From Diadema setosum (lineage: Eukaryota > Echinodermata > Echinoidea > Diadematoida > Diadematidae): a DNA stretch of 64,000 nucleotides. The notes below the pieces were generated by a model. The model searched no databases, had not been told where the DNA came from, and saw only the letters and a program-made list of their open reading frames with translations. The stretch lies in contig NC_092701.1 of assembly GCF_964275005.1 (NCBI RefSeq), positions 6,926,715-6,990,714 on the forward strand, read 5' to 3'. The position numbers and the translations under genes were made by a program. Shown here piece by piece: positions 38,534 to 59,538 of the stretch. Numbering within the stretch: the first letter of the stretch is position 1; every line of letters begins with the position of its first letter.

Positions 38534-40745
38534 TTAAAGTTGAGTAAACAGATAAGTTTTCAACGATGACTTGAACTTATCAACGTTATCAGCATTACGA
38601 ATATGGAGAGGAAGTTTATTCCAGAGAGACGGGGAAATAACAGAAAAAGCCCTATCACCATAGCGGGTGCAGGTGCGGGGACCATGTGATAGTTGGAGAG
38701 TGGAGGAAGAACGAAGAGAACGGGTTGAAGTGGAGGAGCGGAAAGAAATTAAGTCTTTGAGGTAAGATGGAGCAAGATTATTACATATCTTGTAAACGAT
38801 AAGGAGGATTTTGAAGGTGATACGTTGATGTATGGGGAGCCAGTGGAGGGATTGGAGAACAGGAGTAATGTGGTCAGATCTTTTTGTAAGGGTTACAAGC
38901 CTAGCAGCTGTGTTTTGAATTCTTTGAAGTGGTGCAATATACTAGAAGCAGGGAGACCAACAAGAAGGGAATTGCAGTAGTCAAGGTGGGAAGAAACAAA
39001 TGCGTGGATGAGACGTTCAGTGGAAGACTGATCCAATAACTTACGGATTTTACCAATTTTACAGATACCCCAAGCAGCAGAACGACATGAGTTCTTAATG
39101 TGTTGTTGAAAATTCAGGTGCTTATCTACAATAACTCCGAGATCTCTGACGGACTGAGAGGTGGGTATAGTACTGTCTTCGAGGGAAAATTCTGTGAGAG
39201 AACCACCTCGCCTAAACTGAGAATGAACATATAAAAATTCTGATTTAACACAATTCAATTTCAAATAATTATCACATGACCATTGCTTAATATCCTCAAC
39301 ACATCTACTGAGTTTGCAGAGTGCTTCGACTTGAGTATTTGGTTGTATGATTATATAAATTTGAGTATCGTCGGCATACATAACATGTAGAATATCTTCA
39401 TGAGAGTTGATTACAGAAGACAGAGGGGCTGTGTATAGAATAAATAGTAAAGGACCAACCACAGACCCCTGGGGGACACGATGTCTGTGAGGGAATGACT
39501 GAGAAAGTGCACCGTTAACGTTTACCATCTGGTGGCGGTCATGTAAGTAAGATGAAATCCATCTCAAGACTGTTCCCGTAAGACCAAAGTTGGACTCTAA
39601 TCTGTTCAGAAGAATCACATGATTGATAGTGTCAAACGCAGCAGAATAATCTAAAAGCAGGAGAGCAGCTTCGTGGCCTTTGTCTACTGCTAAGAGGAGG
39701 TCATTGAGTACCTTCAATAAGGCGGTTTCTGTGGAATGAAAGTGCCTATAGGCAGACTGACTAGTAGGAAACAACTGGTGTTCATCGAGGTGATCTCTGA
39801 GTTGGCGAGCCACCACTTTCTCGAGAACTTTACCAACAAAAGACAAATTAGCAATGGGGCGGAAATTGTTCAAATCATTATGGTCTAAACTTGGTTTCTT
39901 CAAAAGGGGCAATATGTGAGACCTTTTGAAGTGCTCAGGAACTACGCCAGATGACAATGAGAGGTTCAGAATATGAGTTATTGCAGGAAGAAATTCATCT
40001 AGACACTCTTTTAGTAGCCATGTGGGAAGAGGATCTAGAGAACATGACTTGGACGGAAGAGAATTAATGAGACGTTTCACTTGTGACTCAGTGATTAAAG
40101 CAAACTCTGAAAATACACACTCGGTGTTTACATCTATGTGAGAGGAATTTGAGAAAGAGATTTCAGGAGACACTGGGAATGAAGAAGCAATGGTGCTAAT
40201 CTTGTTGTCGAAAAACTCAGCGAACCGATTGGCCAGTACAAGATTTGAAGTATGGTCAGGAAGAACAGAATCCGGATGTGCAATTGTGAGTTTTTTGATG
40301 ATGTTGAAAAGTTGTTTGGTGTCTGCGGCAGCAATCTCCTGTCTTAGGTGCCTTGACTTAGCGTCGGCAAGGCGGTTGTAGTAGGACTCACACTCTTGCC
40401 GATACAGCTCTCTGTCAATGCAAAGACCAGACTTGATCATACGGCGCTCTGCGCGGCGTCTGCGCCTCTTAGCCTCCTTCACTTCTGCCGTGTACCAAGG
40501 ATTATTCGGCCGCACTGTTACTGATCTAGTCTTGAGTGGAGCGTACTTGTCAAGCAGTCTTGTTACATGAGAGTTGAGCTGCAGGACAGCCTCGGAGGGA
40601 CACGCTGGCTCTCTGACCTGGGAAAGTGATGCTGCAATGTCGTATTTAAAGGAGCAGAGGTCCATAGACCGTAGATTTCTGGAGGTGATCTGCTTCCTAG
40701 GGTTCGCCGGGCCTTTGAGGTTGAGGGTGGTGATGACGGCGGAGT
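38534..40745 (-). pseudogene. LINE reverse transcriptase and C-terminal domain
   Basis: The RT frame is open from ~40745 to 38893. It contains all core RT blocks, including AFDTINH and YADD with both catalytic aspartates. A frame break near 38925 moves the conserved C-terminal domain into another frame, which stays open to a TAA at 38534-38536. The product would act in target-primed reverse transcription. Confidence 0.85.
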
Positions 40746-41906
40746 GGTCAGAGGGCAGAGAACAAGATTCACATTCGATACAATATTGTCGACTTTTCTG
40801 CTAAGAACTAGGTCAAGCGTATGTCCGGCTTTATGAGTTGCCCCTGTAACATGCTGTTGAAATCCTAAAGAGTCGATGGTGCTTAAAAAAGACACAGCCA
40901 AATTATCCGAGCAATCATCAACATGTATGTTGAAATCCCCGAGCAGAATGGAACGATGGTCATCGATTGCCACTGATTCCAGAAGTGTAGGGAATTCTGA
41001 CAAAAATAAGTTATTCGTTAAGTTGTTCTTAGCAGAAGGAGGTGGTCTGTAGATGCCATATACTCTGAGAGCAGATGAATGAGAAAGGTTGATTGTGACA
41101 TCAAGGAGCTCAAATGATGAGAACATGAAAGTGTCATTTTTGGAAATACGTGCAGTTGAACGGACAAGCAAGCAGATGCCACCACCTCTGGAATTTGTTC
41201 GAGGGCAGTGTACAAAATCAAAGTTTGGAAGAGAGGCCTTCAGATCTGCAATTATCAGGTCGTCTTTTTGTGTGCCAGTTAACCAAGTCTCAGTTATAAC
41301 GAGAATATCGAGCTTGGCATCTACCACTAGGTCACATATGTATGCAGACTTGTTGTTCAGGGAGCGAGCATTCCAAATACCAATACGAGTTACAGAGGAT
41401 ATGTCACTTACTGTAGGCCTAGATCTTGTCCGACGGTCTGTAACGACACGAGATGATAGATGTGGTTTGTGAGCTCTGCGACCACGATGTGTACGACGAC
41501 GTCGTCTGATGCCGAGCTCACAGATCCTTTGCCAGACATCTTGATGAAGAAATTGGTCGGCACCTTTATTAAGGTCATGTAATGCGTGAACATCATAACT
41601 TACACGGTGGGGTGGATCGGAGTCATGATGCATACGTAGGCTTACATTGTCGCATTGGTGATGGTCCGACTGAGTCGGGCCAGGATTCAGCTGTATGTCC
41701 CCACATAACAAGATAGAAAGCTGGAAACATGCATGGTGGTTACTATAGTAAGCAATTGGATGACCATGGTATTTCCACGAGTCCGGTTTGGTGGTATTCA
41801 CGCACTTAAAGAGGTCCAGGGGTTGAATGAACTGATCCTCTGCGGATGAAATGAATGGTGACAGGACTGCACAAAAGATGAGAAGCCACCTGCAAAACCC
41901 CTCCAT
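40745..41906 (-). pseudogene. LINE N-terminal, 2A-like and AP-endonuclease part
   Basis: Residues 1-22 resemble a signal peptide. GDIQLNPGP at 69-77 (41702-41676) matches the 2A ribosome-skipping motif D-V/I-E-x-N-P-G-P with Gln for Glu. The endonuclease starts at ~residue 170 (GIWNARSLNN). A frame break at its C-terminal edge separates it from SDHSAV and the RT. Confidence 0.85.
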
Positions 41907-42203
41907 TGATGATGATTGCTCAAGTACAAGAGTCAGTATACACTGAATACAAGAGTCTGTTTACACAGGAATTTGTGTCGGCTCACAAGAATGGATGAAA
42001 AGCTGCTTGGTAATCTCCTCCATTGATGGTTGCTCGATCAAGTACAAGAGTCAGTACACACTGAATACAAGAGTCTGTCTACACAGGAATTTGTGTCCGC
42101 TCACAAGAATGGATGACAAGCTGCTTGGTAATCTCCTCCATTGATGGTTGCTCAAGAACAAGAGTCAGTACACACTGAATACAAGAGTCTGTCTACACAG
42201 GGA
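41901..42203 (-). repeat. LINE 5' monomers, ~118-bp tandem repeat (2.6 copies)
   Basis: CTCCATTGATG starts units at 41901, 42018 and 42136 (periods 117 and 118). The first unit contains the LINE start codon, so the array is its 5' UTR/promoter region. Each of the two upstream ATGs opens a 20-codon frame starting MEEITKQL. Confidence 0.85.
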
Positions 42204-42512: not shown

Positions 42513-42983
42513 CTAGCCACTGTGATCAACCGTTAGACGGTTTCGAAATGATCCCACAGATGGCGCAGAAACAATGTCTGACGACAGGGAATTCCAGTTC
42601 CTTACAGTTCTTGGGAAGAACAAATGGCGATGCGATTCAGTTCTCGAATATGGTACCTGATAAGAGTGTGGTTGCGAGGCTCTCGTTAACTGAGTAGCCT
42701 GTTTGATAATATAGTCCTGTGCTGAAAGAGGAGTAAGATTATTGTGTATTTTGTACATCATAATTAGCCTGTCATTTTCTCTGCGCTGTTCCAGAGTGGT
42801 CCAATCAAGCTCTTGTAGCATTTTGGTGACACTTGAGGTGTTATGGTAGCGATTTAAAGTGAATCGCGCAGCTCTTCTCTGGACCATTTCCACTTGGTGG
42901 ATTAGGTTCTTGGTGAATGGGTCCCAAACTGTAGAAGCATACTCAACAATTGGTCGAACCAACGTTTTGTAAGCTGTGGCTTT
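42513..42983 (-). mobile_element. Interrupted CR1/jockey-group LINE, C-terminal part
   Basis: Minus-strand frame ...DVKATAYKTLVRPIVEYAS, then VQRRAARF, LDWTTLEQRR and FFPRTVRNWNSLS, the C-terminal region of CR1/jockey-group RTs, ending at 42513. Its upstream half lies at 56356-56745, on the other side of the palindrome, and the frame is continuous if one copy of the 6-bp duplication is removed. Confidence 0.85.
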
Positions 42984-42989
42984 AACATC
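42984..42989. repeat. Target site duplication AACATC (left)
   Basis: Identical to 56350-56355. It encodes Asp-Val (GATGTT, minus strand) in the interrupted LINE on both sides. Confidence 0.9.
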
Positions 42990-43084
42990 AGTAGTTAAGT
43001 ATAGGTATAAAGATAGAGAGTGATAGAGTGGCCTATAGATAGAGTTGGGGCTTAATCCCTTGCTCTGGGGGAAGTCGTAAAAAA

Positions 43085-43500
43085 GATGAGGGTATGAATG
43101 GGGGTGCGATATGAAAATATGATGGTAGAGAAAGGGGGGAAAAATATAAGGGTAATGGAGTAACGTGTCAGGTGTATGAGAAAGAGTTGATGGTAGTGAA
43201 TGTTGGTAAATAGTGAAATTATGGTGGTATTTTATTGGTCAAGTTGAAGTTTGACAGACTTGTTCACATGCTTTATAACGTGTTGTGTGAAAGGTGGGAG
43301 AGCATCGACTGGTGTGATTTTTTTGGAGCAAGGAAATACGTGAAGAATGATGGTAGTTACGTTCAAAGATAGAATTGATTATGATGGAAGGGGGAAGCTG
43401 TGGTTGTAAAGTGTATGAATAACTTGGGTGATGTGGAGGGAGAAAACATCAGAACTATAAGTGTAATGTATTGCATTTGTAGAGACGATAATTTTGACAG
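43085..43500. repeat. Sub-terminal direct repeat R1 (left arm)
   Basis: About 400 bp similar at perhaps 75-80% to 45583-45985 in the same orientation (GAGAGCATCGACTGGTGTGA and AAATACGTGAAGAATGATG are shared exactly). The right arm has the mirror pair. Confidence 0.7.
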
Positions 43501-44079
43501 TTATTATCTTTGATTAAGGAATTTTCAGTTGGTGATAGCAGACAGGGATAAAAAATATTTGCTGTCCATGGTGTGTGGGATCAGTGCTTTGGATGAGGAA
43601 TAAGAGTATTTTCCAAAATTTAAGACAAATTACACGGAAAAAACATGACAGCTTCGCCATATGAGAGCATGAGTGCGGGCTCAAGGAAGCAGAACAAAAG
43701 AAAAAAGCATGCATAAAATTTACAGAGGCGTTGTAATGGAATTTACATTGGTACATTTCTGAAATATGTGAGCTTCTTTGTCAGTATCCTTGTTGAGTGA
43801 TATATATATATTTTCAGAGTAGCGGTATTTCGGCTCAAGCACGACAATAGATTTACAAATCTAGACATGTAGCTGTCGATTTATATACTACATGTTATGA
43901 CATTATGAAAATTGTATGGACTTTTTCTTTAAACACAGTCTAAGCTGGCCCAGAAGATCGTGAGCACGCGATATTTGAGAGAGTCATGAAGAGCACTTTG
44001 ATTTGACTTTAAGAAATAAACGCTTTGATGTTTAGGTTTGTTTTTTGTGCATTGTGAATGGTCTGGTACGACAAAAAAT

Positions 44080-44550
44080 ATTGCTGAAGTGTAAATTTAC
44101 ATGCCGTTTATGCAAGCAAGACTGAAGAATGTCCATCGAACTGACGAAATGATTGCACAACAGTAACAGAAACGCACACAAATAACACGTCTGTGGCGAG
44201 TTTTTTTGTTTTTTTGTTTTTTTTTTGTTTTTTTTTGTTTTTTGGTTTTTGTTTGTTTGTTTGTTTTGTTTTGTTATTGTTGTTTTTGTAGACGTAACAA
44301 ATTCGACTGGCACGAATATCAATGTAAATATTGCTGAAGTGTAAATTTTTATGCCGTTTATATGCAAGACTGAAGAATGTCCATCGAAATGATTGCACAG
44401 CAGTAACAGAAACGCACACAACACGTCTGTGGCGATTTTTTTTTTTTTGTTTATTTGTTTTTTTTTTGTTTCGTTTTGATTTTTGTTTTGTTTTGTTGTT
44501 GTTGTTTTTTGTAGACGTAACAAATTCGACTGGCACGATTATAAATGCTA
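44080..44550. repeat. Tandem duplication of ~220-250 bp (left arm)
   Basis: Two units start ATTGCTGAAGTGTAAATTT at 44080 and 44330. Each contains AACAGAAACGCACACAA, a T-rich tract and GTAGACGTAACAAATTCGAC. Mirrored in the right arm at ~54840-55260. Confidence 0.8.
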
Positions 44551-45582
44551 CATAAAAAAGTCTGATATAGTCGCAGTGTACGATAAAGACGGTAAATTGC
44601 AAGACGCAGTTGGTCCGAGCAAGTTTATATTTTGACTTCGAGTGTATTTAAAGCACTGGCCAACAGGAACCAAATTATTGTATCGCACAAAAGTCATACA
44701 GCGAACGTTGCGACTGTGATTTGGAGAGGGAGTGTCAAATATTACGCGGTGATGAAAGAAAAAAAAAATATTTTCAGAAGACAACGGTGACGAGTTTTGC
44801 AAGGGGCTGTTTGGTGATGAATCGAAAGTCGATTTTAGCGCACAGTTTAAACGCTACGGCGGGTTATTTGTTTAAAAGTATGAGGAATCTGTATAGCACC
44901 AAATCTTATTTCTATCGGTAAAAAGATCGTGCCAATGTTTGTGTCTTTTTTTTTTAATTAAACGCGCTTCGTCGACTCTATCATATTTTTGCCTTTGCCT
45001 CTGGCTGACATACCAAACACATTTGTGCTGTTAGAGCTGAAACAAAAGATATTCTTGTATATGTGCATTGTTTTTGTTGTTTTTGTTGTTGTTGTTGTTG
45101 TTTTGACACGAAAGGAAAAAGGGAATACAAAGATCCAATGTCTACCATAACAGATATATACAATTTAAAAGTTTTGAGTATCAGAACCCAGGCATATCCG
45201 TCCATTTTTTTAAATCGGTATAGGCCCTAGCAGAGAGGTTGCTTTCGGCAAGCAAAGTTGTTATGGGAGGTGGATTTAGGTTATCAGTGACTTAGATATT
45301 TTGTGTCACTGCTGCTTGCGATTTAGATCTCTCGTTATTGACATTACTACGAGATTCCGACGATATTGCCATACATACCCTTACAAAATGCTTCACTATA
45401 GCTGCAGCGTGTTATTTGGTGTAAACACGCAATCCAAAAAAGAATATGGGTTTGCTCCTACCTGTGGGTAACGCCTTCGAGATATTCAGACGGGAAGCCA
45501 GTCATGGAGTGGTTTCAATACATCAAGAAAATGGAGAACATGCACACAGGGTATGCGCAAAACCAAGATGAGATGGAAAAAA

Positions 45583-45985
45583 GGTGAGGGTATGAGAAAA
45601 CAGAGAGATAAAAGTGTGGTGGTAGTGAATGTGGGAAAGATATAGGTAAACGTCAGGTGTACGAGATAGATATGATGGTAGTGATTGTTGGTGAATGGTG
45701 AAAATGTGACGGTATTTCATAGGTAAAATTGAAATTTGACAATCTTGTTCACATCGTTTATAATGCGTCGGGTGAAGGGGAGAGAGCATCGACTGGTGTG
45801 ATTGTTGCTGAGTTAGGAAATACGTGAAGAATGATGATAGTCACGTTGAAAGATATCGTTGATTACGATGTTAGGGTAAAACATGTGTGTGGAAGGGTAT
45901 AAAATAACTTGATAGTGAGTAGGAGAATTGTTCAGAACTACATGCAATTGCTGTAGAGGCTCCTACAATTCGACATTATCACTTC
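45583..45985. repeat. Sub-terminal direct repeat R2 (left arm)
   Basis: Second copy of R1, ~2.5 kb further in. Mirrored in the right arm near 53360-53760. Confidence 0.7.
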
Positions 45986-47855
45986 GTCACCGATGAACAT
46001 GGCGGTTTCTTCAACTTCGTCATACACAGGTACTCATCGTGTAGCAGGTTTTTTTTAGAAAATCGTGCGTGTCAGTTGGCAGAAAATGTTTTTAAGGTAA
46101 GATGCTGAAAGCAATTTTGCTGTTTGTATTGTGGATATCATGTCGTAATGATCGAGTGTTGGCAATATTTTTGATGATGTCCGTATAACGTTAAAGTTGA
46201 TATTGAAAGCATAATCATGATGTTGAGTTGAGTAATGATGATTGTGACACATGATAATGCAGTTTAGGTAAAATACGTAGTATCTGAATATGTCCATACT
46301 GTGGCAATGTTTTGAAGTTCAGAAAAAAAAATTGCCAATGCCTGAATTTATTTTTGTAGATATTGTTTTTAATGTATTTTAGTGGTAGCAAGTCGAAATA
46401 AGTTTGATCTTACAAAATGAATAAAAAAGCAGACACACAAGGAACAAGAACATTGACTTTAGAACTAGAATGTAAAGTCCAAAAATAGTGGATGAATTGT
46501 GGGAGAGGGGTAGATTTGAAGCGTTTTGAGAAAAACCCCAGCATAACTGAAGGTAGTGTGGAATTAGTGTACTTACGGTTGCTTTCTTCGCCATGCATTA
46601 TCACGAACTGCTTTATAACAGGATTCTCACACAAAAGTGAAAGCGAAAAATCATCGTCAAGAAAGACCAACCTGGGCTATTGAGATGGGGAAGACGATGA
46701 AGGTACTTGTTTGACAGATATAGGCTGAGCGGAGGCAAGCACGACAGCAAAATCGCAAGTCATGTTTTCGATGTGGAATGGAGGAAGACTGGAAGAGGGA
46801 ATGCCCAGTTAGACTGAGAAACAAGAACACGCAGGTACGAAATTTGATAAACAGTGTCTCTGTCAGACCAGTTAGGTTTCACAAAATCGTGTGCAACAAG
46901 AGAATCATAACGCGCGATTTCAAAACTGTACCGTATTGTCAAACCTGGAAATCAATCGAGTTTCTTGCATTACATTTTTTGGATTACATACTTTCGGTGA
47001 ATTTCAATTTGCATATTGCGATGATGGAGACTTTAATGTAAAGTTTAGATATCTTACAAGGGACAGAAGAGTATATCGTAGTGAAATCATTTTCTGTGAA
47101 TATCGTTAGTTTTATTACAATAAGCCTGTCACATTAAGGCAGGCAGTGGCGTATCTTTGACAAGATTTTGCGATGATTGTTTTTTTTGTCGGTTTTCGTA
47201 AACTTATTTTATGCAAACTAAGAGAAATATGCTAGTTACGTTACCTTCGTGTATTCTTTGCAACTGTACAGTTTAACTCTGCCTGTCTCCATTTCAGTTT
47301 AAGAGTTACTGTAAGGCTCTTTTGTGCAACGACCCCTTTTTTTTAAACAAATGTGATGTAATGGAAACGAATTTGATGAATTGCACATTTATAAATGGTG
47401 TAGAGAATGCTTTCGTGTTGATATCGAATCTGTGATTGTTTTGAACACCAAATTTTTTGTCCAATATGACAACAATCAGTTGTAACTGATGGATGAGATG
47501 TCGGTACATTTTGTTGAAGTTTGGCAAAACTCTGCTTGATGTAGTCTTATTTTTTTGTTTGTTTGATTTTCAATCTGTCAGGATGGCTGGATAGCCTATA
47601 TTTAGCTGTACTAGAACTAGCAATTCGCCTAATTTTTCTATGACAAGATTGATTAGGCTTATTATACGGGTATTTTGTAGAAAAAAAAAAAAAAAAAACC
47701 CAAAACTAAATGTGTCCAAAGTTGACTTAAATCTCTCTAATGTTAGTATGATGAAAAGCCGAAATACAGGAGAAATAGTAATGTCCTATGATAACATTCT
47801 CGTCTATGGTGTGTGACGATTTTTTTTTAAACACTGTATTGGTTTACAGTTGTAC

Positions 47856-47888
47856 GGTTGTTTGTCACGAGTATCACGTTCACTAACG
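47856..47888 (-). repeat. 33-bp motif, copy i
   Basis: Core GTTTGTCACGAGTATCACGT then TCACTAACG. Same motif as at 48955, 49625, 49721, 50390 and 51492, here inverted relative to copies ii and iii. Confidence 0.7.
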
Positions 47889-48379
47889 TTTCTTAACGAT
47901 AAAGATATTTAATAAGTCATCAGAATGCGTTGGTACTTGGAGAATCAATTTGATAGTTGTATTGTGTGTCACAGCATACCTCTGTGTTGTGAATGTTTGA
48001 ATAATATATGCATTCATTAAAGCGTGCAATGTGTATAATTATGAAGTGACTACAGAAAATGAACCACCTTAAGAAAAAATAACATTCAAACGTGATTCAT
48101 TCATCGTTCATTAAACATAATTATTGTATACATAAGAATTACGATCTGAAAAAAAAAATGTCTTCTCCTTCTGACTGATATGATAAGCTCATGGTGCATG
48201 TACAGTGTATGTGTGTGTGTGTGTGTGTGTGTTTGTGTGGTGCGTGACTTATCTTACACAAGGTGTTTGTGTGCGAGAGGTGTTTGCAGCATTCTATCAT
48301 GATTGTTATACTGACGTAAATTACGATATAAACTGAACGTTTGCAGTAACGTTTAGACACGTTACAAATTTCTCGTCAC

Positions 48380-49662
48380 ATATTTTCTACGTACGTACAT
48401 AAAAGATTTAGATGCAATCGATACAGGCTTAAAATAATTTACAATCATAAACAAACACAGATGCGCATAAATACATGTTGCGGTAATTTTGCAGTTAGAA
48501 GTGAGCTGTGAATGTTGCCTGAAAGAAATCGGAATTGATATATGAATGCGCTCTGTGCCTGACTCTGTGCGAATATTGTGTGTACGACTAGCATGGTTGG
48601 AAAAAAAAACAGTTATTACTCATCCTTTAGACTTAACTTTGTACCCGTCAATACTTTTCAAAAATTGCGAGTGAAAGAGACATGTATGTGGAGAAGAAGT
48701 GCGTTGTGTTTCCGATTAAACCAATCGTTGACTTTTTGTTGTTGTTTTGTCGATGAAATGAATCGTTGATCTTTTTTTTTTTTTGGTCGTCACTCTTAAA
48801 ACAAACCCGTTCCAAAAAAAACAACAACAATTCATTCTTCGTGCTATTTCGTGAAGAAAGTTTGACAAGATTAAACGACATATCAAATAAAAACTTCAAA
48901 TATCAAACACACTGTAACAACGTACGAAATATTTTGATCGTTAAAAAAAAAAAATGTTAGTGAACGCGATGGTCGCGACAAACAACCATACAGACTGTTA
49001 ATTAAGCTAGGCCTATGAATATTCGTCCTTTGATGTTTTCTATGGACGTACATCAAAGATTGAGATGCAATCGATACAAGCATTAAATAATTTACAATTA
49101 TAAACAAACACATGTGCGCATAAATACATGCTGCCATAATTTTGCAGATAGAAGCGTGCTGTAAATTTTGCCTGAATGAAATCGGAGTAAGATAAACGAA
49201 TGCGCTCTGTGCCTGACTCTGTACAAATATTGTTTGAACAACTAGCGTAGTTGCAAAAAAAAAAAAGAACAAAAACACAAAACAAAACAGTTATTACTGA
49301 TCCCTTGGACTTACTTCGTATATACTCGTCAATACATTTCGAAAATTGTCTGAGAGTGAAAGAGACATGTGTATGTCGAGTAGAAATGCATTGTGTTTCC
49401 ATTTCAACCATGACAATCGTTGACTTTTCGTTGTTGTTTTGCCGATTAAATCAATGGTTGAATTTTTTTGTTGTCACTCTTGAAGCCCGTTCCAAACAAA
49501 ACCAATTCATATTTCATGCTATTGCCTAAAGAACGTTTGACAAGATTAAACGTAATATCAAATAAAATCTTCAAATATCTAACAAATTGTAATAACTGAC
49601 AATTTTTTTTGATCGTTAAAAAAGTGTTAGTGAACGTGATGTTCGCGACAAACAACCATGCA
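48380..49662. repeat. Two diverged ~640-bp tandem units beside the palindrome centre (left arm)
   Basis: Unit A (48380-48995) and unit B (49035-49662) share GATGCAATCGATACA, TGCGCATAAATACATG and GCGCTCTGTGCCTGACTCTG. Each ends in the 33-bp motif (48955-48987; 49625-49657). The mirror images lie at ~49716-51000. Confidence 0.8.
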
Positions 49663-49664
49663 AA

Positions 49665-49713
49665 CTATTATAAGAATATTCGTCTTTTCATGGTTGACGA
49701 TTATTCTTAATAT
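49665..49713. other. Palindrome spacer
   Basis: The sequence between the arms is not a perfect mirror. AAGAATATTCGTC and GACGATTATTCTT pair with small gaps, so the stem nearly continues to the centre. Confidence 0.75.
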
Positions 49714-52700
49714 TTTGCATGGTTGTTTGTCGCGAACATCACGTTCACTAACACTTTTTTAACGATAAAAAAAATTGTCAGTTATTACAATTTGTTAGAT
49801 ATTTGAAGATTTTATTTGATATTACGTTTAATCTTGTCAAACGTTCTTTAGGCAATAGCATGAAATATGAATTGGTTTTGTTTGGAACGGGCTTCAAGAG
49901 TGACAACAAAAAAATTCAACCATTGATTTAATCGGCAAAACAACAACGAAAAGTCAACGATTGTCATGGTTGAAATGGAAACACAATGCATTTCTACTCG
50001 ACATACACATGTCTCTTTCACTCTCAGACAATTTTCGAAATGTATTGACGAGTATATACGAAGTAAGTCCAAGGGATCAGTAATAACTGTTTTGTTTTGT
50101 GTTTTTGTTCTTTTTTTTTTTTGCAACTACGCTAGTTGTTCAAACAATATTTGTACAGAGTCAGGCACAGAGCGCATTCGTTTATCTTACTCCGATTTCA
50201 TTCAGGCAAAATTTACAGCACGCTTCTATCTGCAAAATTATGGCAGCATGTATTTATGCGCACATGTGTTTGTTTATAATTGTAAATTATTTAATGCTTG
50301 TATCGATTGCATCTCAATCTTTGATGTACGTCCATAGAAAACATCAAAGGACGAATATTCATAGGCCTAGCTTAATTAACAGTCTGTATGGTTGTTTGTC
50401 GCGACCATCGCGTTCACTAACATTTTTTTTTTTTTAACGATCAAAATATTTCGTACGTTGTTACAGTGTGTTTGATATTTGAAGTTTTTATTTGATATGT
50501 CGTTTAATCTTGTCAAACTTTCTTCACGAAATAGCACGAAGAATGAATTGTTGTTGTTTTTTTTGGAACGGGTTTGTTTTAAGAGTGACGACCAAAAAAA
50601 AAAAAAGATCAACGATTCATTTCATCGACAAAACAACAACAAAAAGTCAACGATTGGTTTAATCGGAAACACAACGCACTTCTTCTCCACATACATGTCT
50701 CTTTCACTCGCAATTTTTGAAAAGTATTGACGGGTACAAAGTTAAGTCTAAAGGATGAGTAATAACTGTTTTTTTTTCCAACCATGCTAGTCGTACACAC
50801 AATATTCGCACAGAGTCAGGCACAGAGCGCATTCATATATCAATTCCGATTTCTTTCAGGCAACATTCACAGCTCACTTCTAACTGCAAAATTACCGCAA
50901 CATGTATTTATGCGCATCTGTGTTTGTTTATGATTGTAAATTATTTTAAGCCTGTATCGATTGCATCTAAATCTTTTATGTACGTACGTAGAAAATATGT
51001 GACGAGAAATTTGTAACGTGTCTAAACGTTACTGCAAACGTTCAGTTTATATCGTAATTTACGTCAGTATAACAATCATGATAGAATGCTGCAAACACCT
51101 CTCGCACACAAACACCTTGTGTAAGATAAGTCACGCACCACACAAACACACACACACACACACACACACATACACTGTACATGCACCATGAGCTTATCAT
51201 ATCAGTCAGAAGGAGAAGACATTTTTTTTTTCAGATCGTAATTCTTATGTATACAATAATTATGTTTAATGAACGATGAATGAATCACGTTTGAATGTTA
51301 TTTTTTCTTAAAGTGGTTCATTTTCTGTAGTCACTTCATAATTATACACATTGCACGCTTTAATGAATGCATATATTATTCAAACATTCACAACACAGAG
51401 GTATGCTGTGACACACAATACAACTATCAAATTGATTCTCCAAGTACCAACGCATTCTGATGACTTATTAAATATCTTTATCGTTAAGAAACGTTAGTGA
51501 ACGTGATACTCGTGACAAACAACCGTACAACTGTAAACCAATACAGTGTTTAAAAAAAAATCGTCACACACCATAGACGAGAATGTTATCATAGGACATT
51601 ACTATTTCTCCTGTATTTCGGCTTTTCATCATAACATTAGAGAGATTTAAGTCAACTTTGGACACATTTAGTTTTGGGTTTTTTTTTTTTTTTTTCTACA
51701 AAATACCCGTATAATAAGCCTAATCAATCTTGTCATAGAAAAATTAGGCGAATTGCTAGTTCTAGTACAGCTAAATATAGGCTATCCAGCCATCCTGACA
51801 GATTGAAAATCAAACAAACAAAAAAATAAGACTACATCAAGCAGAGTTTTGCCAAACTTCAACAAAATGTACCGACATCTCATCCATCAGTTACAACTGA
51901 TTGTTGTCATATTGGACAAAAAATTTGGTGTTCAAAACAATCACAGATTCGATATCAACACGAAAGCATTCTCTACACCATTTATAAATGTGCAATTCAT
52001 CAAATTCGTTTCCATTACATCACATTTGTTTAAAAAAAAGGGGTCGTTGCACAAAAGAGCCTTACAGTAACTCTTAAACTGAAATGGAGACAGGCAGAGT
52101 TAAACTGTACAGTTGCAAAGAATACACGAAGGTAACGTAACTAGCATATTTCTCTTAGTTTGCATAAAATAAGTTTACGAAAACCGACAAAAAAACAATC
52201 ATCGCAAAATCTTGTCAAAGATACGCCACTGCCTGCCTTAATGTGACAGGCTTATTGTAATAAAACTAACGATATTCACAGAAAATGATTTCACTACGAT
52301 ATACTCTTCTGTCCCTTGTAAGATATCTAAACTTTACATTAAAGTCTCCATCATCGCAATATGCAAATTGAAATTCACCGAAAGTATGTAATCCAAAAAA
52401 TGTAATGCAAGAAACTCGATTGATTTCCAGGTTTGACAATACGGTACAGTTTTGAAATCGCGCGTTATGATTCTCTTGTTGCACACGATTTTGTGAAACC
52501 TAACTGGTCTGACAGAGACACTGTTTATCAAATTTCGTACCTGCGTGTTCTTGTTTCTCAGTCTAACTGGGCATTCCCTCTTCCAGTCTTCCTCCATTCC
52601 ACATCGAAAACATGACTTGCGATTTTGCTGTCGTGCTTGCCTCCGCTCAGCCTATATCTGTCAAACAAGTACCTTCATCGTCTTCCCCATCTCAATAGCC

Positions 52701-55097
52701 CAGGTTGGTCTTTCTTGACGATGATTTTTCGCTTTCACTTTTGTGTGAGAATCCTGTTATAAAGCAGTTCGTGATAATGCATGGCGAAGAAAGCAACCGT
52801 AAGTACACTAATTCCACACTACCTTCAGTTATGCTGGGGTTTTTCTCAGAACGCTTCAAATCTACCCCTCTCCCACAATTCATCCACTATTTTTGGACTT
52901 TACATTCTAGTTCTAAAGTCAATGTTCTTGTTCCTTGTGTGTCTGCTTTTTTATTCATTTTGTAAGATCAAACTTATTTCGACTTGCTACCACTAAAATA
53001 CATTAAAAACAATATCTACAAAAATAAATTCAGGCATTGGCAATTTTTTTTTCTGAACTTCAAAACATTGCCACAGTATGGACATATTCAGATACTACGT
53101 ATTTTACCTAAACTGCATTATCATGTGTCACAATCATCATTACTCAACTCAACATCATGATTATGCTTTCAATATCAACTTTAACGTTATACGGACATCA
53201 TCAAAAATATTGCCAACACTCGATCATTACGACATGATATCCACAATACAAACAGCAAAATTGCTTTCAGCATCTTACCTTAAAAACATTTTCTGCCAAC
53301 TGACACGCACGATTTTCTAAAAAAAACCTGCTACACGATGAGTACCTGTGTATGACGAAGTTGAAGAAACCGCCATGTTCATCGGTGACGAAGTGATAAT
53401 GTCGAATTGTAGGAGCCTCTACAGCAATTGCATGTAGTTCTGAACAATTCTCCTACTCACTATCAAGTTATTTTATACCCTTCCACACACATGTTTTACC
53501 CTAACATCGTAATCAACGATATCTTTCAACGTGACTATCATCATTCTTCACGTATTTCCTAACTCAGCAACAATCACACCAGTCGATGCTCTCTCCCCTT
53601 CACCCGACGCATTATAAACGATGTGAACAAGATTGTCAAATTTCAATTTTACCTATGAAATACCGTCACATTTTCACCATTCACCAACAATCACTACCAT
53701 CATATCTATCTCGTACACCTGACGTTTACCTATATCTTTCCCACATTCACTACCACCACACTTTTATCTCTCTGTTTTCTCATACCCTCACCTTTTTTCC
53801 ATCTCATCTTGGTTTTGCGCATACCCTGTGTGCATGTTCTCCATTTTCTTGATGTATTGAAACCACTCCATGACTGGCTTCCCGTCTGAATATCTCGAAG
53901 GCGTTACCCACAGGTAGGAGCAAACCCATATTCTTTTTTGGATTGCGTGTTTACACCAAATAACACGCTGCAGCTATAGTGAAGCATTTTGTAAGGGTAT
54001 GTATGGCAATATCGTCGGAATCTCGTAGTAATGTCAATAACGAGAGATCTAAATCGCAAGCAGCAGTGACACAAAATATCTAAGTCACTGATAACCTAAA
54101 TCCACCTCCCATAACAACTTTGCTTGCCGAAAGCAACCTCTCTGCTAGGGCCTATACCGATTTAAAAAAATGGACGGATATGCCTGGGTTCTGATACTCA
54201 AAACTTTTAAATTGTATATATCTGTTATGGTAGACATTGGATCTTTGTATTCCCTTTTTCCTTTCGTGTCAAAACAACAACAACAACAACAAAAACAACA
54301 AAAACAATGCACATATACAAGAATATCTTTTGTTTCAGCTCTAACAGCACAAATGTGTTTGGTATGTCAGCCAGAGGCAAAGGCAAAAATATGATAGAGT
54401 CGACGAAGCGCGTTTAATTAAAAAAAAAAGACACGAACATTGGCACGATCTTTTTACCGATAGAAATAAGATTTGGTGCTATACAGATTCCTCATACTTT
54501 TAAACAAATAACCCGCCGTAGCGTTTAAACTGTGCGCTAAAATCGACTTTCGATTCATCACCAAACAGCCCCTTGCAAAACTCGTCACCGTTGTCTTCTG
54601 AAAATATTTTTTTTTTCTTTCATCACCGCGTAATATTTGACACTCCCTCTCCAAATCACAGTCGCAACGTTCGCTGTATGACTTTTGTGCGATACAATAA
54701 TTTGGTTCCTGTTGGCCAGTGCTTTAAATACACTCGAAGTCAAAATATAAACTTGCTCGGACCAACTGCGTCTTGCAATTTACCGTCTTTATCGTACACT
54801 GCGACTATATCAGACTTTTTTATGTAGCATTTATAATCGTGCCAGTCGAATTTGTTACGTCTACAAAAAACAACAACAACAAAACAAAACAAAAATCAAA
54901 ACGAAACAAAAAAAAAACAAATAAACAAAAAAAAAAATCGCCACAGACGTGTTGTGTGCGTTTCTGTTACTGCTGTGCAATCATTTCGATGGACATTCTT
55001 CAGTCTTGCATATAAACGGCATAAAAATTTACACTTCAGCAATATTTACATTGATATTCGTGCCAGTCGAATTTGTTACGTCTACAAAAACAACAAT

Positions 55098-55132
<35 letters not shown>

Positions 55133-56349
55133 AAAAAACTCGCCACAGACGTGTTATTTGTGTGCGTTTCTGTTACTGTTGTGCAATCATTTCGTCAGTT
55201 CGATGGACATTCTTCAGTCTTGCTTGCATAAACGGCATGTAAATTTACACTTCAGCAATATTTTTTGTCGTACCAGACCATTCACAATGCACAAAAAACA
55301 AACCTAAACATCAAAGCGTTTATTTCTTAAAGTCAAATCAAAGTGCTCTTCATGACTCTCTCAAATATCGCGTGCTCACGATCTTCTGGGCCAGCTTAGA
55401 CTGTGTTTAAAGAAAAAGTCCATACAATTTTCATAATGTCATAACATGTAGTATATAAATCGACAGCTACATGTCTAGATTTGTAAATCTATTGTCGTGC
55501 TTGAGCCGAAATACCGCTACTCTGAAAATATATATATATCACTCAACAAGGATACTGACAAAGAAGCTCACATATTTCAGAAATGTACCAATGTAAATTC
55601 CATTACAACGCCTCTGTAAATTTTATGCATGCTTTTTTCTTTTGTTCTGCTTCCTTGAGCCCGCACTCATGCTCTCATATGGCGAAGCTGTCATGTTTTT
55701 TCCGTGTAATTTGTCTTAAATTTTGGAAAATACTCTTATTCCTCATCCAAAGCACTGATCCCACACACCATGGACAGCAAATATTTTTTATCCCTGTCTG
55801 CTATCACCAACTGAAAATTCCTTAATCAAAGATAATAACTGTCAAAATTATCGTCTCTACAAATGCAATACATTACACTTATAGTTCTGATGTTTTCTCC
55901 CTCCACATCACCCAAGTTATTCATACACTTTACAACCACAGCTTCCCCCTTCCATCATAATCAATTCTATCTTTGAACGTAACTACCATCATTCTTCACG
56001 TATTTCCTTGCTCCAAAAAAATCACACCAGTCGATGCTCTCCCACCTTTCACACAACACGTTATAAAGCATGTGAACAAGTCTGTCAAACTTCAACTTGA
56101 CCAATAAAATACCACCATAATTTCACTATTTACCAACATTCACTACCATCAACTCTTTCTCATACACCTGACACGTTACTCCATTACCCTTATATTTTTC
56201 CCCCCTTTCACTACCATCATATTTTCATATCGCACCCCCATTCATACCCTCATCTTTTTTACGACTTCCCCCAGAGCAAGGGATTAAGCCCCAACTCTAT
56301 CTATAGGCCACTCTATCACTCTCTGTCTTTATACCTATACTTAACTACT

Positions 56350-56355
56350 AACATC
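56350..56355. repeat. Target site duplication AACATC (right)
   Basis: Matches 42984-42989. Confidence 0.9.
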
Positions 56356-56745
56356 AGAAGATTTTATGCGAAGATTGCGTTTTAGAAAAGCAAGCACGTT
56401 ATTGGCTTTATTGACAGTATTATTGATGTGTTGGGTCCACTTCAAATCAGAAGTAATGGTTACACCTAAGTACTTCACGGATTCAACAGATTCAAGAGGG
56501 GCGTTATTTAGATGATACACGTGTTGCACCTTACTTCTTTTCCTGGATATTGTCAAAACCTTGCACTTATCTGTGTTCAAATCCATCATCCATTTTTTCG
56601 CCCAGTCACCAATTTTGTTTAGGTCCTCTTGAAGATTTTGCGTATGATGTTGATTGTCGATGGTCATGTAAGAAATTGCATCATCGGCAAAAAGGCGAAC
56701 CTTTGACGCGAGACCATCAGGTAAGTCAATATATCGAAAGAGTCC
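56356..56745 (-). mobile_element. Interrupted LINE, RT catalytic part
   Basis: The minus-strand frame reads YIDLPDGLASKVRLFADD, the catalytic FADD box, then KWMMDLNTDKCKVLTISRKR, VKYLGVTITSDLKWTQH and NLRIKSSDV at the insertion point. RT sequence upstream of the catalytic box is not recognisable beyond ~56745, so the LINE was 5' truncated or deleted there. Confidence 0.85.
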
Positions 56746-59538
56746 ACTAAGAAACTTACCTGGCTGACGCGGTTTGCCTGAATGATGAGTCGGTTTGGAG
56801 TATTTTGAGAAAAATAATAATAGTAGGAAAACCGACTTTTATTCCAGAAGGCTCCAGACTAACTCGGTCTCGGGAAAAATTCGACCCTACTTCAAACAAT
56901 TCAAACGCAGTAAGTGATCGCCACATTCTACTGGCCACTGCATAATACCAAATGAATGAGGCCTAACTGAATGGACAGGAAAGTGCGTGCTAACGTAATC
57001 CTGTACAAAACAAAACAAAAATGACAGCGCGCGGTCCTCAGTTGCTGAGACGCGCGGTCTTTGGAGTTTTTGTTGTTTATCAAGCGCCTTTGATTGTTTT
57101 AGAGGTGCTTGATAGGCGCACACCATTTTGCATGCGCGCAAAAGAGGTTTTTGATGCGCGCGTTGTAACAACTCGGACCATTACTGCGAGTAGCCAGAAC
57201 ACGAAGCGCTAGTTTATACAGGCCGCTCCCATGGACAACACTGTACAATCAGAGGGACAACCATTACAACTCATCCCGCCGTCAAAAAGCGAAGCCGAGT
57301 TATCCCCGAGTCCGAGTTTAGCCTGATCCCGTTCGGGTAAGTATGAGACTGAACCTTTTTGGTTAATATTTTACATTTTCGTCGTTACCCATCGAATATC
57401 TTGTAATAACATCGTTATCCTGCACATTTCATAAGCATACGTTCACATTTGGGAGCGAAATTTGACAACTTTTGCAGGCGTACCAGAACTTTGTTTGGGC
57501 TTTAAGTGCTGTGGTTTCATTTGGAAGAAAGAAAGTGAAATCGCGACGCACAGACAAATTATACGACCGACACACATAATTATTATGCTACCATACTAGA
57601 AGTGACAAATAACGATATGAAATAATACCGCAGAAGAACATTAAAAAGATTGTCATCATGAAGAGCTGCAGAGCTGATTATACCTGTAAGTCGAGTGTCT
57701 ATTACGTTCTTTTGGCTTACTGCGGTGTGTCCCCGGAGGAGGGTGACGATTTCGCGATGTAAGTTTAGAAGTAACGTTACGTGTACGCTCTTCTAGCAGA
57801 GTGGAATTACCGCGATGCAAAGTGATCTTAAATTTGCCCTCATCCTCCGCCGTCTTATTGTCAGAAATTTGCAAGAAGTTCCAAGTCTCCTGCCCTTTGG
57901 CGTCAGTGTCATTGGTTTTAGCAAGGCTTGTGATAGCATACATTGCCCGTCTCTGGAAAGTGCTTATCTCATAATGGTCTACCTGACATAGTGGTCCAAG
58001 CCATAAAGAAGATGTATGCCGGCTCAAGATGCTGTATAAGAGCTGACGATGGTCAAGCGACAGGTTCGAGATGCTAACAGATGTACGTCCAAGGATGTAT
58101 TTATAGGCCTATAGCCAAACCTTTGTGCCATTAAATTGGGTCACGGTATTAGAAGATTCTACGTTTCTACGGTCCATTCCTTGTTTATCTGTGATATATT
58201 GGATTACTGCACTCAATTACATTTTAATTTCAAAGCTTCATTTACTCATCAGTTTAGTCTATTAATTGTATTGTCTGCATAATCTTGTCTTATCCACCTT
58301 CAAAATCACCCCTTACAGTATCGATGTAACATTAAGAGAATTGCTATATCTGAAAAATTTTCTACATTCAAATTTACATTTTGATTCAATTCCTACCTTG
58401 CCCGTGTCCATATCATAAGTTGCCACAATCGGCTCAGCTGAAGACCTGTTCACCCAATTAAAGGTCTCGCCAGTGATATATCCTTGCTATACCGGTATAG
58501 TTGTCAAAAGCTTCGCCACAAATTCTATCCGTATTCGAGATATTCATGTATACTATTCTCTAGCAGCGTTAAAGTCGTGTACGAATATAGTGATTGTACA
58601 TCATGCAGTGTTTCAGTCTAGAGGAGTTATACGAGCTTTCATAGGCCATACATTATGCCCCCCCCAAAAAAAAAAAAAAAAATGTATATATATATATATA
58701 CAATCGGATCTTCGCATTGATAACACCCAATATGATTAAACCGTCTAAATGCTACTTCAGGGTCTTAAAATATAACATCTTAGCTCTATTTTGCAGAAAA
58801 CCCATTCAATTTGGTTAAGCGGTCACAGAGAAATGTGGATTGTTGCAAAGCATGCCATGAGTCTGATTCTTCCAAGTTTAGCACTTGGATGCTCTTGGAA
58901 CTGCATATTAATGTGTGAACACAATAGACAGAACTTGGAGGGAAGAGATTCCTGACATGCTCTACAAAATTCCCCATTTCTCTTTGATCACTGAAGCAAA
59001 TCAAATTGGGTTTTCTATAAGATGTGGGAAATGAGTTATAGTTTCATACACTGAAATTGTATTTGGATTGATTCGCTATTTTTCAAGTTATCGTTGCGGA
59101 GGGTACCGTTGTATTTTCTTTTCTTTTTTTTTTTGACATAATATCATACGGTATATTAGCTGTTATAAGGCAAAAATCGTATTTCAAGATGCATTTGCGT
59201 ATTCTAATAAATTAGTAACTACAAAGAATATAACAACGAAAAAATTGCTCATAATTATGTTGTAAATGTTGGCCTTATCGTGAATTTTAACTCCTTAACC
59301 TTCTTTTCACGACGATACTGATTCGAATTTGAATGCGTTGCACGTAAATGTTTAATTTGAACGCCTTTTTTTACGTTTATTTGAGAAACTCATGAAGTCG
59401 CATGCTGATGGAATTGAATTGAATGAACTATCTAGTTACTTTTTTGAATGTTGATCTCGGTGATCATTCAGTTCACTCGAACTTGAATGACCGCACTGTT
59501 AAATTGAATGCAAATCTGATGAAATTGGGAGGGAAAAC
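56746..59538. other. Gene-poor stretch
   Basis: Contains a GCGC-rich patch with CTTGATAGGCGCAC / GCGCGCGTTGTAAC (~57030-57170), a 123-codon minus-strand frame (58027-57656) that I do not recognise and that lacks splice support, and an A-run followed by (TA)n at 58662-58700. Confidence 0.45.

What the first reader, a model, noticed from the sequence alone, without database searches (positions are those of the whole stretch)
42990..56349. A 13.36-kb near-perfect palindrome that inserted as a unit, with Polinton-like ends
Both arms (~6.65 kb) mirror each other at >99% identity by eye. The outer ends are AGTAGTTAAG...CTTAACTACT and are bounded by an exact 6-bp duplication, AACATC. The interrupted LINE frame resumes correctly across the element (…SSDV | DVKATAY…) with one duplication copy, so the boundaries are certain to the base. 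No known gene was found. One explanation is an end-derived, symmetrical non-autonomous Polinton: protein-primed replicons such as adenovirus are known to give defective genomes that are inverted duplications of one end. That mechanism is inference.
Basis: partly seen in the sequence, partly recalled or inferred. Interest (0 to 1): 0.88.

Follow-up and report, generated by a model that had tools for sequence, protein, structure and literature searches.

The report
Giant mirror-image passenger of Polinton transposons
This 13-kb stretch is a gene-less jumping element whose two halves are near-perfect mirror images, one of about ten such elements in an animal genome, apparently carried by virus-like Polinton transposons and with both halves made identical again each time it spreads.

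Summary
Window 42990-56349 is a 13,360-bp palindrome (7 mismatches in 5,793 compared columns outside the centre) with AGTAGT...ACTACT ends and an exact AACATC duplication. It sits in a LINE whose uninterrupted site matches 40 other places. It is not unique: the core is an inverted pair at 10 loci. All nine that I read whole are palindromes of 8.5-14.8 kb, and eight have exact, different 6-bp duplications. A palindrome of the sister subfamily shares its first ~395 bp (98%) with the 520-bp TIRs of a gene-bearing Polinton in the same genome (integrase, polymerase B, packaging ATPase, likely protease). These are best read as non-autonomous Polintons that are all terminal repeat. Over the outer 4 kb the two arms of each copy are each other's closest relatives (9 of 9), although the subfamilies differ by about a quarter. 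Asymmetry shared by all compared copies is confined to the centre. The palindrome is thus inherited as such and its arms are made alike again in each cycle, best explained by a hairpin intermediate of protein-primed replication.

The parts
42984..42989 (.). left copy of the 6-bp target duplication AACATC
42990..49684 (+). left arm of the palindrome; begins AGTAGTTAAG
49685..49695 (.). central loop (11 nt in the predicted fold) of the near-perfect hairpin; the stem beside it keeps two arm-arm mismatches shared with the C19 copy, 12 and 26 alignment columns from the cut at the centre
49696..56349 (-). right arm, mirror image of the left; ends CTTAACTACT
56350..56355 (.). right copy of the target duplication AACATC
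42990..43532 (+). subfamily-specific end region (arm 1-543): no match to the six sister palindromes; searches with W 1-200 and with the C7 end found it only in window-type palindromes (with their internal partial copies) and in a truncated copy on C15
43533..49684 (+). core of the arm; blocks of 250 bp or more match the sister arms C12, C4 and C6 at 73-82%, with no codon periodicity
46724..46909 (+). relict of a CCHC zinc-knuckle reading frame (motif intact in several sister copies, degenerate here); mirror copy at about 52466-52651 on the - strand, placed by symmetry
42516..42989 (-). part of the interrupted LINE reading frame left of the element (...DVKATAYKTLVRP...)
56344..56838 (-). part of the interrupted LINE reading frame right of the element (RVT_1, E 3.9e-8; the listed frame runs a few bases into the element)

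Best explanation
The element is a non-autonomous Polinton (Maverick) in which the terminal inverted repeats have grown until they meet, so the whole element is TIR. It has no recognisable genes. It most likely spreads by borrowing a Polinton's protein-primed polymerase and integrase, which act on its AGTAGT ends and leave 6-bp duplications. During replication the displaced single strand can fold along its whole length into a ~6.7-kb hairpin, a panhandle with no single-stranded body. In that form one arm serves as template or repair partner for the other, by heteroduplex repair or by snap-back copying from the loop. Each new insertion therefore starts with matching arms, while the loop or spacer, which has no partner, is inherited unchanged. 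SHOWN: palindrome, duplications, ends, empty sites, family, end sharing between the sister subfamily and a gene-bearing Polinton, concerted arms, inherited centre. INFERRED: trans-mobilisation, the hairpin intermediate, and that snap-back made the first palindrome.
For: (1) Family: the core lies as an inverted pair at 10 loci (30 of 30 candidates scored). Nine were read whole and all nine are palindromes, 8,456-14,822 bp. (2) 8 of 9 have exact, mutually different 6-bp duplications; C10:19.82 Mb does not. (3) Polinton link: with the first 1,051 bp of the C12 palindrome as query, C13 and C10:27.95 Mb match over the whole query at 97-98%. The C12 arm matches both TIRs of a 16,094-bp element on C11 at 98% over 394-398 bp, and its left subterminal region at 78% over 551 alignment columns. 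That element has 520-bp TIRs (99.4%), duplication TCTGCA, an rve+chromo integrase, an adenoviral-type protease match (E 5.6e-4, just under the curated cut-off), a Pox_A32-like ATPase and DNA_pol_B_2. (4) Concerted arms: in a tree of the first 4 kb of 18 arms, L and R of one insertion are sisters in 9 of 9 copies, ultrafast bootstrap 99-100; 18 of 18 arms are nearest their own partner over the first 4,000 alignment columns of each subfamily. (5) Symmetric history, last 900 columns left out: in the sister subfamily 297 of 3,894 gap-free columns differ between copies yet have L=R in every copy, and only 2 columns have L different from R in more than one copy; in the window subfamily the figures are 172 of 5,233 and 2. 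(6) Inherited centre: columns where every compared copy is asymmetric lie only within the last 26 of 709 columns in W/C19 and the last 64 of 719 in C12/C13/C10b.
Against: No gene-bearing element with the window's own first 200 bp, or with the C7 copy's first 543 bp, was found (8 of 8 and 17 of 17 candidates scored). C4, C6 and C10:19.82 Mb match the C12 end only over 361 bp at 91-93%, and C17, C19 and C7 gave no match to it; W's arm has no real match to the C11 Polinton. Most of the C12 arm is not C11 Polinton sequence. Some L/R differences are not private: both alleles also occur in other copies at 9 columns in the sister subfamily and 10 in C7, and two further columns show an asymmetry in 2 of the 3 copies C12/C13/C10b, 87 and 160 columns from the centre. 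Longest identical tract between arms exceeded all 2,000 random placements in C7 (415 bp, mean longest 178), C6 (715) and C4 (1,253); in C6 and C4 I put this down to mismatches crowded near the centre, but conversion in the chromosome is possible. When the inner arms are included, 3 of 18 arms (C7_L, C6_L, C6_R) are not nearest their own partner. Indels of 10 bp or more are symmetric in every copy in only 14 of 27 (sister subfamily) and 10 of 23 (window subfamily) events. The polymerase frame of the C11 element is split in two, so that copy may be inactive.
Confidence: 0.72

Rival explanations
1. Ordinary chromosomal gene conversion: the palindrome is a static foldback-type element, and its arms are kept alike after insertion by conversion in the chromosome, as in large chromosomal palindromes.
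For: C7, C6 and C4 have an identical tract longer than any of 2,000 random placements gave. Large chromosomal palindromes are known to convert (recalled).
Against: Arm-arm divergence ranges from 0.03% (C19) to about 3% in the outer part of C7 (6.4% over its whole aligned arm) with no common floor; in C12 and C10:19.82 Mb the longest tract is as random placement predicts. Substitutions shared by C12, C13 and C10b are already symmetric in all three independent insertions, so symmetry existed before they dispersed.
Confidence: 0.2
2. One-off defective genome: a single end of a Polinton was duplicated by snap-back and inserted, with no further life as a palindrome.
For: Polinton ends and duplication. 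Snap-back by protein-primed polymerases is plausible: more than 85% of the rearrangements in a phi29-type amplification were inverted sequences (PMC1855051, abstract).
Against: Ten loci carry the inverted core. W and C19 share the same centre and loop though their arms differ by about 2%. Most of the C12 arm is not C11 Polinton sequence.
Confidence: 0.06
3. Assembly artefact: a hairpin read or library chimera produced a false second arm, or the assembler merged two arms.
For: Palindromes are hard to assemble; the C9:22.90 Mb copy has 200 N and an incomplete arm.
Against: Distinct flanks with matching duplications on both sides at eight loci, arms with private differences, and empty sites elsewhere for the window's insertion.
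Confidence: 0.02

Closest known systems
Polinton/Maverick self-synthesising transposons
   Same: (AGT)2//(ACT)2 ends and 6-bp duplications (PMC8097293, passages read); a sister palindrome shares ~395 bp of TIR at 98% with a gene-bearing Polinton in the same genome.
   Different: No recognisable genes. TIR occupies the whole element, ~6.7 kb per arm, against 46-1,447 bp in the intact vertebrate elements of that paper. C20 in this genome, with 6.1-kb TIRs and a single-copy centre, is intermediate in form.
Foldback elements (Drosophila FB, Tetris, Galileo)
   Same: Non-autonomous elements that are mostly long inverted repeat (Tetris: PMC4079207, passages read).
   Different: [quoted passage not shown] here the ends and duplication are Polinton-type, and tandem units are a small part of the arm.
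Hairpin linear plasmid of Kluyveromyces pGKL origin (Kikuchi et al. 1985)
   Same: From recall: a deletion derivative of a protein-primed linear replicon that exists as a perfect hairpin and as its palindromic dimer.
   Different: Yeast cytoplasm and extrachromosomal. Only the title was seen, in a reference list; the paper is not held.
Adenovirus defective genomes and ITR panhandle
   Same: From recall: inverted duplications of one end, and panhandle pairing that keeps the two ends identical. A panhandle model for elements with protein-primed polymerases is stated in PMC4046053 (passages).
   Different: From recall, products of infection; this is a family of insertions in an animal genome.

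Membership tests
Polinton/Maverick (as non-autonomous member) | 6-bp target site duplication | tested here: met
   AACATC exact; 8 of 9 palindromes
Polinton/Maverick (as non-autonomous member) | (AGT)2//(ACT)2 or (AG)3//(CT)3 end motif (PMC8097293) | tested here: met
   AGTAGT...ACTACT in the window element; relatives C7 and C19 read AGAAGA instead, and C4 has one changed base at one end
Polinton/Maverick (as non-autonomous member) | TIR shared with a gene-bearing element | tested here: inconclusive
   Met for the sister palindrome C12 (394-398 bp at 98%); not found for the window's own end
Polinton/Maverick (autonomous) | protein-primed PolB, integrase, capsid genes | tested here: not met
   No Pfam family at or above its cut-off in any of six frames of the left arm; the element is not autonomous
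Polinton/Maverick (as non-autonomous member) | movement by Polinton proteins | not testable with these tools
   needs an experiment
Foldback element | long inverted repeats making up most of the element | tested here: met
Foldback element | Mutator-type or P-type (Galileo) duplication length (recalled: 8-9 or 7 bp) | tested here: not met
   6-bp duplications at all eight loci that have one
MITE of a cut-and-paste superfamily | short element with ends of a cut-and-paste transposase (recalled) | tested here: not met
   8.5-14.8 kb, Polinton-type ends

The most novel reading that the evidence does not exclude
These are hairpin satellites of a virus-like transposon: replicons reduced to a pair of origins and a giant stem that multiply as hairpins beside Polintons. 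They may be packaged by them (6 of 9 fall within the 12.7-24.6 kb of intact vertebrate Mavericks and two more are 11.5-11.8 kb), and any read-through transcript would be double-stranded RNA, in the sister subfamily carrying helper end sequence. Arm identity at insertion would then work as a molecular birth stamp, as LTRs do for retroelements.
Probability: 0.3. Interest if true: 0.87.

Novelty: new variant of a known kind. Interest (0 to 1): 0.74.

Why it matters
As far as I know, how Polintons replicate has been inferred mostly from their genes. A family of all-TIR elements whose arms evolve together while only the centre keeps a shared asymmetry is a natural record of the replication intermediate: it points to a full-length foldback stage and makes the panhandle model testable from sequence alone. 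It also gives an age for each insertion, shows that 13-kb palindromes can persist and spread in an animal genome, and offers a test of whether Polintons support satellite elements as viruses do. I saw no description of palindromic Polintons in six searches of the held open-access library (listings only, 25 of 44 and 12 of 15 papers listed); the library lacks most subscription journals.

Tried and rejected
Phage records at DNA level: no match to the arm. IMG/VR scan for an exact sister-type end pattern: 0. Rfam on the window: two tRNAs only, neither in the element. Hidden genes: no Pfam family at or above cut-off in six frames of the left arm (the only hits were ATG5_HBR and ORC_WH_C at E 0.28 and 0.18, below cut-off), and no codon periodicity between the window arm and three sister arms (C12, C4, C6). 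The ORFs listed in the arms are therefore treated as chance or relict. The region upstream of one other PolB, on C6 (L054), shares no match with the arms or the C11 element. Whether the new outer ends of C20 belong to a gene-bearing Polinton was asked six times and never answered. Most PolB hits (54 matches) were not examined for their ends. The host species was not identified. The nearest-partner test fails for 3 of 18 arms when the inner arms are included; I rely on the outer 4 kb because the inner arms of C6 and C7 hold most of their mismatches and probably align poorly. Papers read in passages but not used: PMC2836005, PMC11071308.
Full report
WHAT IS THERE. The window element (W) spans 42990-56349 and is a palindrome of 13,360 bp. 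Aligned half to half, it has 8 mismatches and 9 gaps in 6,722 columns; leaving out the last 900 columns next to the centre, 7 mismatches in 5,793. The centre folds as a continuous hairpin stem with an 11-nt loop at 49685-49695. The ends are AGTAGTTAAG/CTTAACTACT and the duplication AACATC is exact. With one copy of the duplication the flanks read through in a LINE frame, and the joined site matches uninterrupted at 40 places at 97-100%, six of them at 100% over 360 bp; 40 of 290 candidates were scored.

IT IS A FAMILY. The genome held for this window has 912.7 Mb in 102 contigs. A 1,341-bp piece of the arm core finds inverted pairs at 10 loci (C17 = the window, C19, C9, C7, C12, C6, C13, C4 and two on C10), single copies or parts at C20, C16, C7:32.20 Mb, C9:12.76 Mb and C4:39.37 Mb, and a few short fragments on C11 and C16 (30 of 30 candidates scored, 41 matches). 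Nine of the ten were read whole, and all nine are palindromes: W 13,360, C7 11,541, C19 14,822, C10:19.82 Mb 12,795, C12 13,404, C6 11,783, C13 13,384, C10:27.95 Mb 13,376 and C4 8,456 bp. The tenth (C9) has an assembly gap. Eight of nine have exact 6-bp duplications, all different; C10:19.82 Mb has none. W, C19 and C7 form one subfamily and the other six another; W and the sister arms C12, C4 and C6 are 73-82% identical in blocks of 250 bp or more.

THE POLINTON LINK. Searching with the end of the C12 palindrome led to an element at C11:22905253-22921346. It is 16,094 bp long, with 520-bp TIRs at 99.4%, duplication TCTGCA, an integrase with rve and chromo domains, an adenoviral-type protease match (E 5.6e-4, just under its curated cut-off), a Pox_A32-like ATPase and DNA_pol_B_2 in two frames. 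That is a Polinton by content; no capsid frame was recognised by Pfam. The C12 arm matches both of its TIRs over 394-398 bp at 98%, and its left subterminal region over 551 alignment columns at 78%; beyond that only overlapping 25-29-bp matches remain, which look like a simple repeat. C4, C6 and C10:19.82 Mb match the C12 end over 361 bp at 91-93%. The window subfamily has other end sequences: W's first 200 bp finds 8 places and C7's first 543 bp finds 17, all within palindromes of this subfamily (the unfinished C9 copy included) or the truncated C15 copy. So W's own helper is not identified. Its assignment rests on (AGT)2//(ACT)2 ends with a 6-bp duplication, a combination given for vertebrate Mavericks in PMC8097293 (passages), and on kinship with the sister subfamily.

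WHAT THE ARMS CARRY. No Pfam family reaches its cut-off in any of six frames of the left arm, and substitutions between W and three sister arms show no codon periodicity. One relict is clear: a CCHC zinc knuckle, intact in the C12 copy (zf-CCHC, E 4.8e-8) and degenerate in W, so part of the core was probably captured from a retroelement. C20 shows the same core as a single copy between 6.1-kb TIRs, so the core exists in both unduplicated and duplicated form; which is ancestral was not tested.

ARMS EVOLVE TOGETHER. In a tree of the first 4 kb of 18 arms, both arms of every insertion are sisters, 9 of 9, ultrafast bootstrap 99-100. By distance, 18 of 18 arms are nearest their own partner over the first 4,000 alignment columns of each subfamily, and 15 of 18 when the inner arms are included, the exceptions being C7_L, C6_L and C6_R. 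With the last 900 columns left out, in the sister subfamily 297 of 3,894 gap-free columns separate copies with L=R in every copy, against 2 columns where two copies are asymmetric; in the window subfamily the figures are 172 of 5,233 and 2. Of those four columns, two involve different bases in the two copies, so at most two could be inherited asymmetry there. Against this, both alleles of an L/R difference also occur in other copies at 9 columns in the sister subfamily and 10 in C7. Indels of 10 bp or more are less tidy: 14 of 27 and 10 of 23 events are symmetric in every copy, and most of the exceptions involve C7, C4, C6 or the inner arm.

THE CENTRE IS INHERITED. Columns in which every compared copy is asymmetric are confined to the last 26 of 709 columns before the centre in W and C19, and to the last 64 of 719 in C12, C13 and C10b; two further columns, 87 and 160 from the centre, are asymmetric in two of those three. 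W and C19 thus share a loop and two stem mismatches although their arms differ by about 2%. The palindrome is not remade from scratch at each insertion: it is passed on, with arms corrected and the centre left alone.

MECHANISM. A single-stranded intermediate whose TIRs pair as a panhandle is proposed for casposons, on the model given earlier for Polintons, in PMC4046053 (passages). For an all-TIR element that panhandle is the whole molecule. Correction of one arm by the other, by mismatch repair in the hairpin or by copying from a snapped-back 3' end, gives matching arms and an untouched loop. Polymerases of the protein-primed kind readily make inverted joints: in a multiple displacement amplification more than 85% of rearrangements were inverted (PMC1855051, abstract; that the enzyme is of this kind is recalled). 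A hairpin plasmid is known in a protein-primed yeast system (title only seen; content recalled). This step is inference. The main rival is conversion after insertion. It is disfavoured by the spread of arm divergences (0.03% in C19 to about 3% in the outer part of C7), by random-looking mismatch placement in C12 and C10:19.82 Mb, and by symmetric substitutions shared among three separate insertions. It is not excluded: in C7, C6 and C4 the longest identical tract exceeds all 2,000 random placements, which in C6 and C4 may only reflect mismatches crowded near the centre.

VERDICT. The finding is real and understated. The best filing is a new variant of a known kind: a family of all-TIR, non-autonomous Polintons. 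The one-end-duplication origin is plausible for the founder but not shown.

Noticed in passing
G000:C20:23947002-23964669 (L050, L046, L044, L047, L051): Relative with 6.1-kb TIRs (98.3%), a single-copy core of about 5.4 kb, ends AGTAGTTATA and duplication GGTGTC. A sister-type end lies about 5.4 kb inside each TIR with no duplication there, as if new outer ends had been added symmetrically.
   Followed up: partly
G000:C16:32588570-32599760 (L053, L048, L045, L049, L052): A relative of the C20 element with the core in single copy and TIRs of at least about 4 kb (96.4%); its outer ends were not reached.
   Followed up: partly
G000:C11:22901561-22902561 and 22924172-22924405: Fragments of the palindrome core flank the gene-bearing C11 Polinton on both sides, suggesting nesting.
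   Followed up: no
G000:C9:22898959-22918958 (L015, L016): A tenth palindrome, with 200 N in the fetched stretch and part of an arm missing.
   Followed up: partly
window 43167-43426 and 45652-45911: The window's end region has an internal 80% copy about 2.5 kb inside the arm, possibly the relict of an older end.
   Followed up: no
window 48380-49670: Two tandem ~650-bp units next to the centre; in the sister palindrome C12 the corresponding units lie in the opposite orientation within the arm.
   Followed up: partly
window 601-4643: TPR plus CHAT domain gene pieces.
   Followed up: no
window 20731-21411: Uninterrupted ribosomal protein S2-family frame (E 3.2e-44), perhaps a processed copy.
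   Followed up: no
window 38896-41960: A second LINE with endonuclease and reverse transcriptase; its N-terminal part reads GDIQLNPGP, a 2A-like motif (motif name recalled).
   Followed up: no
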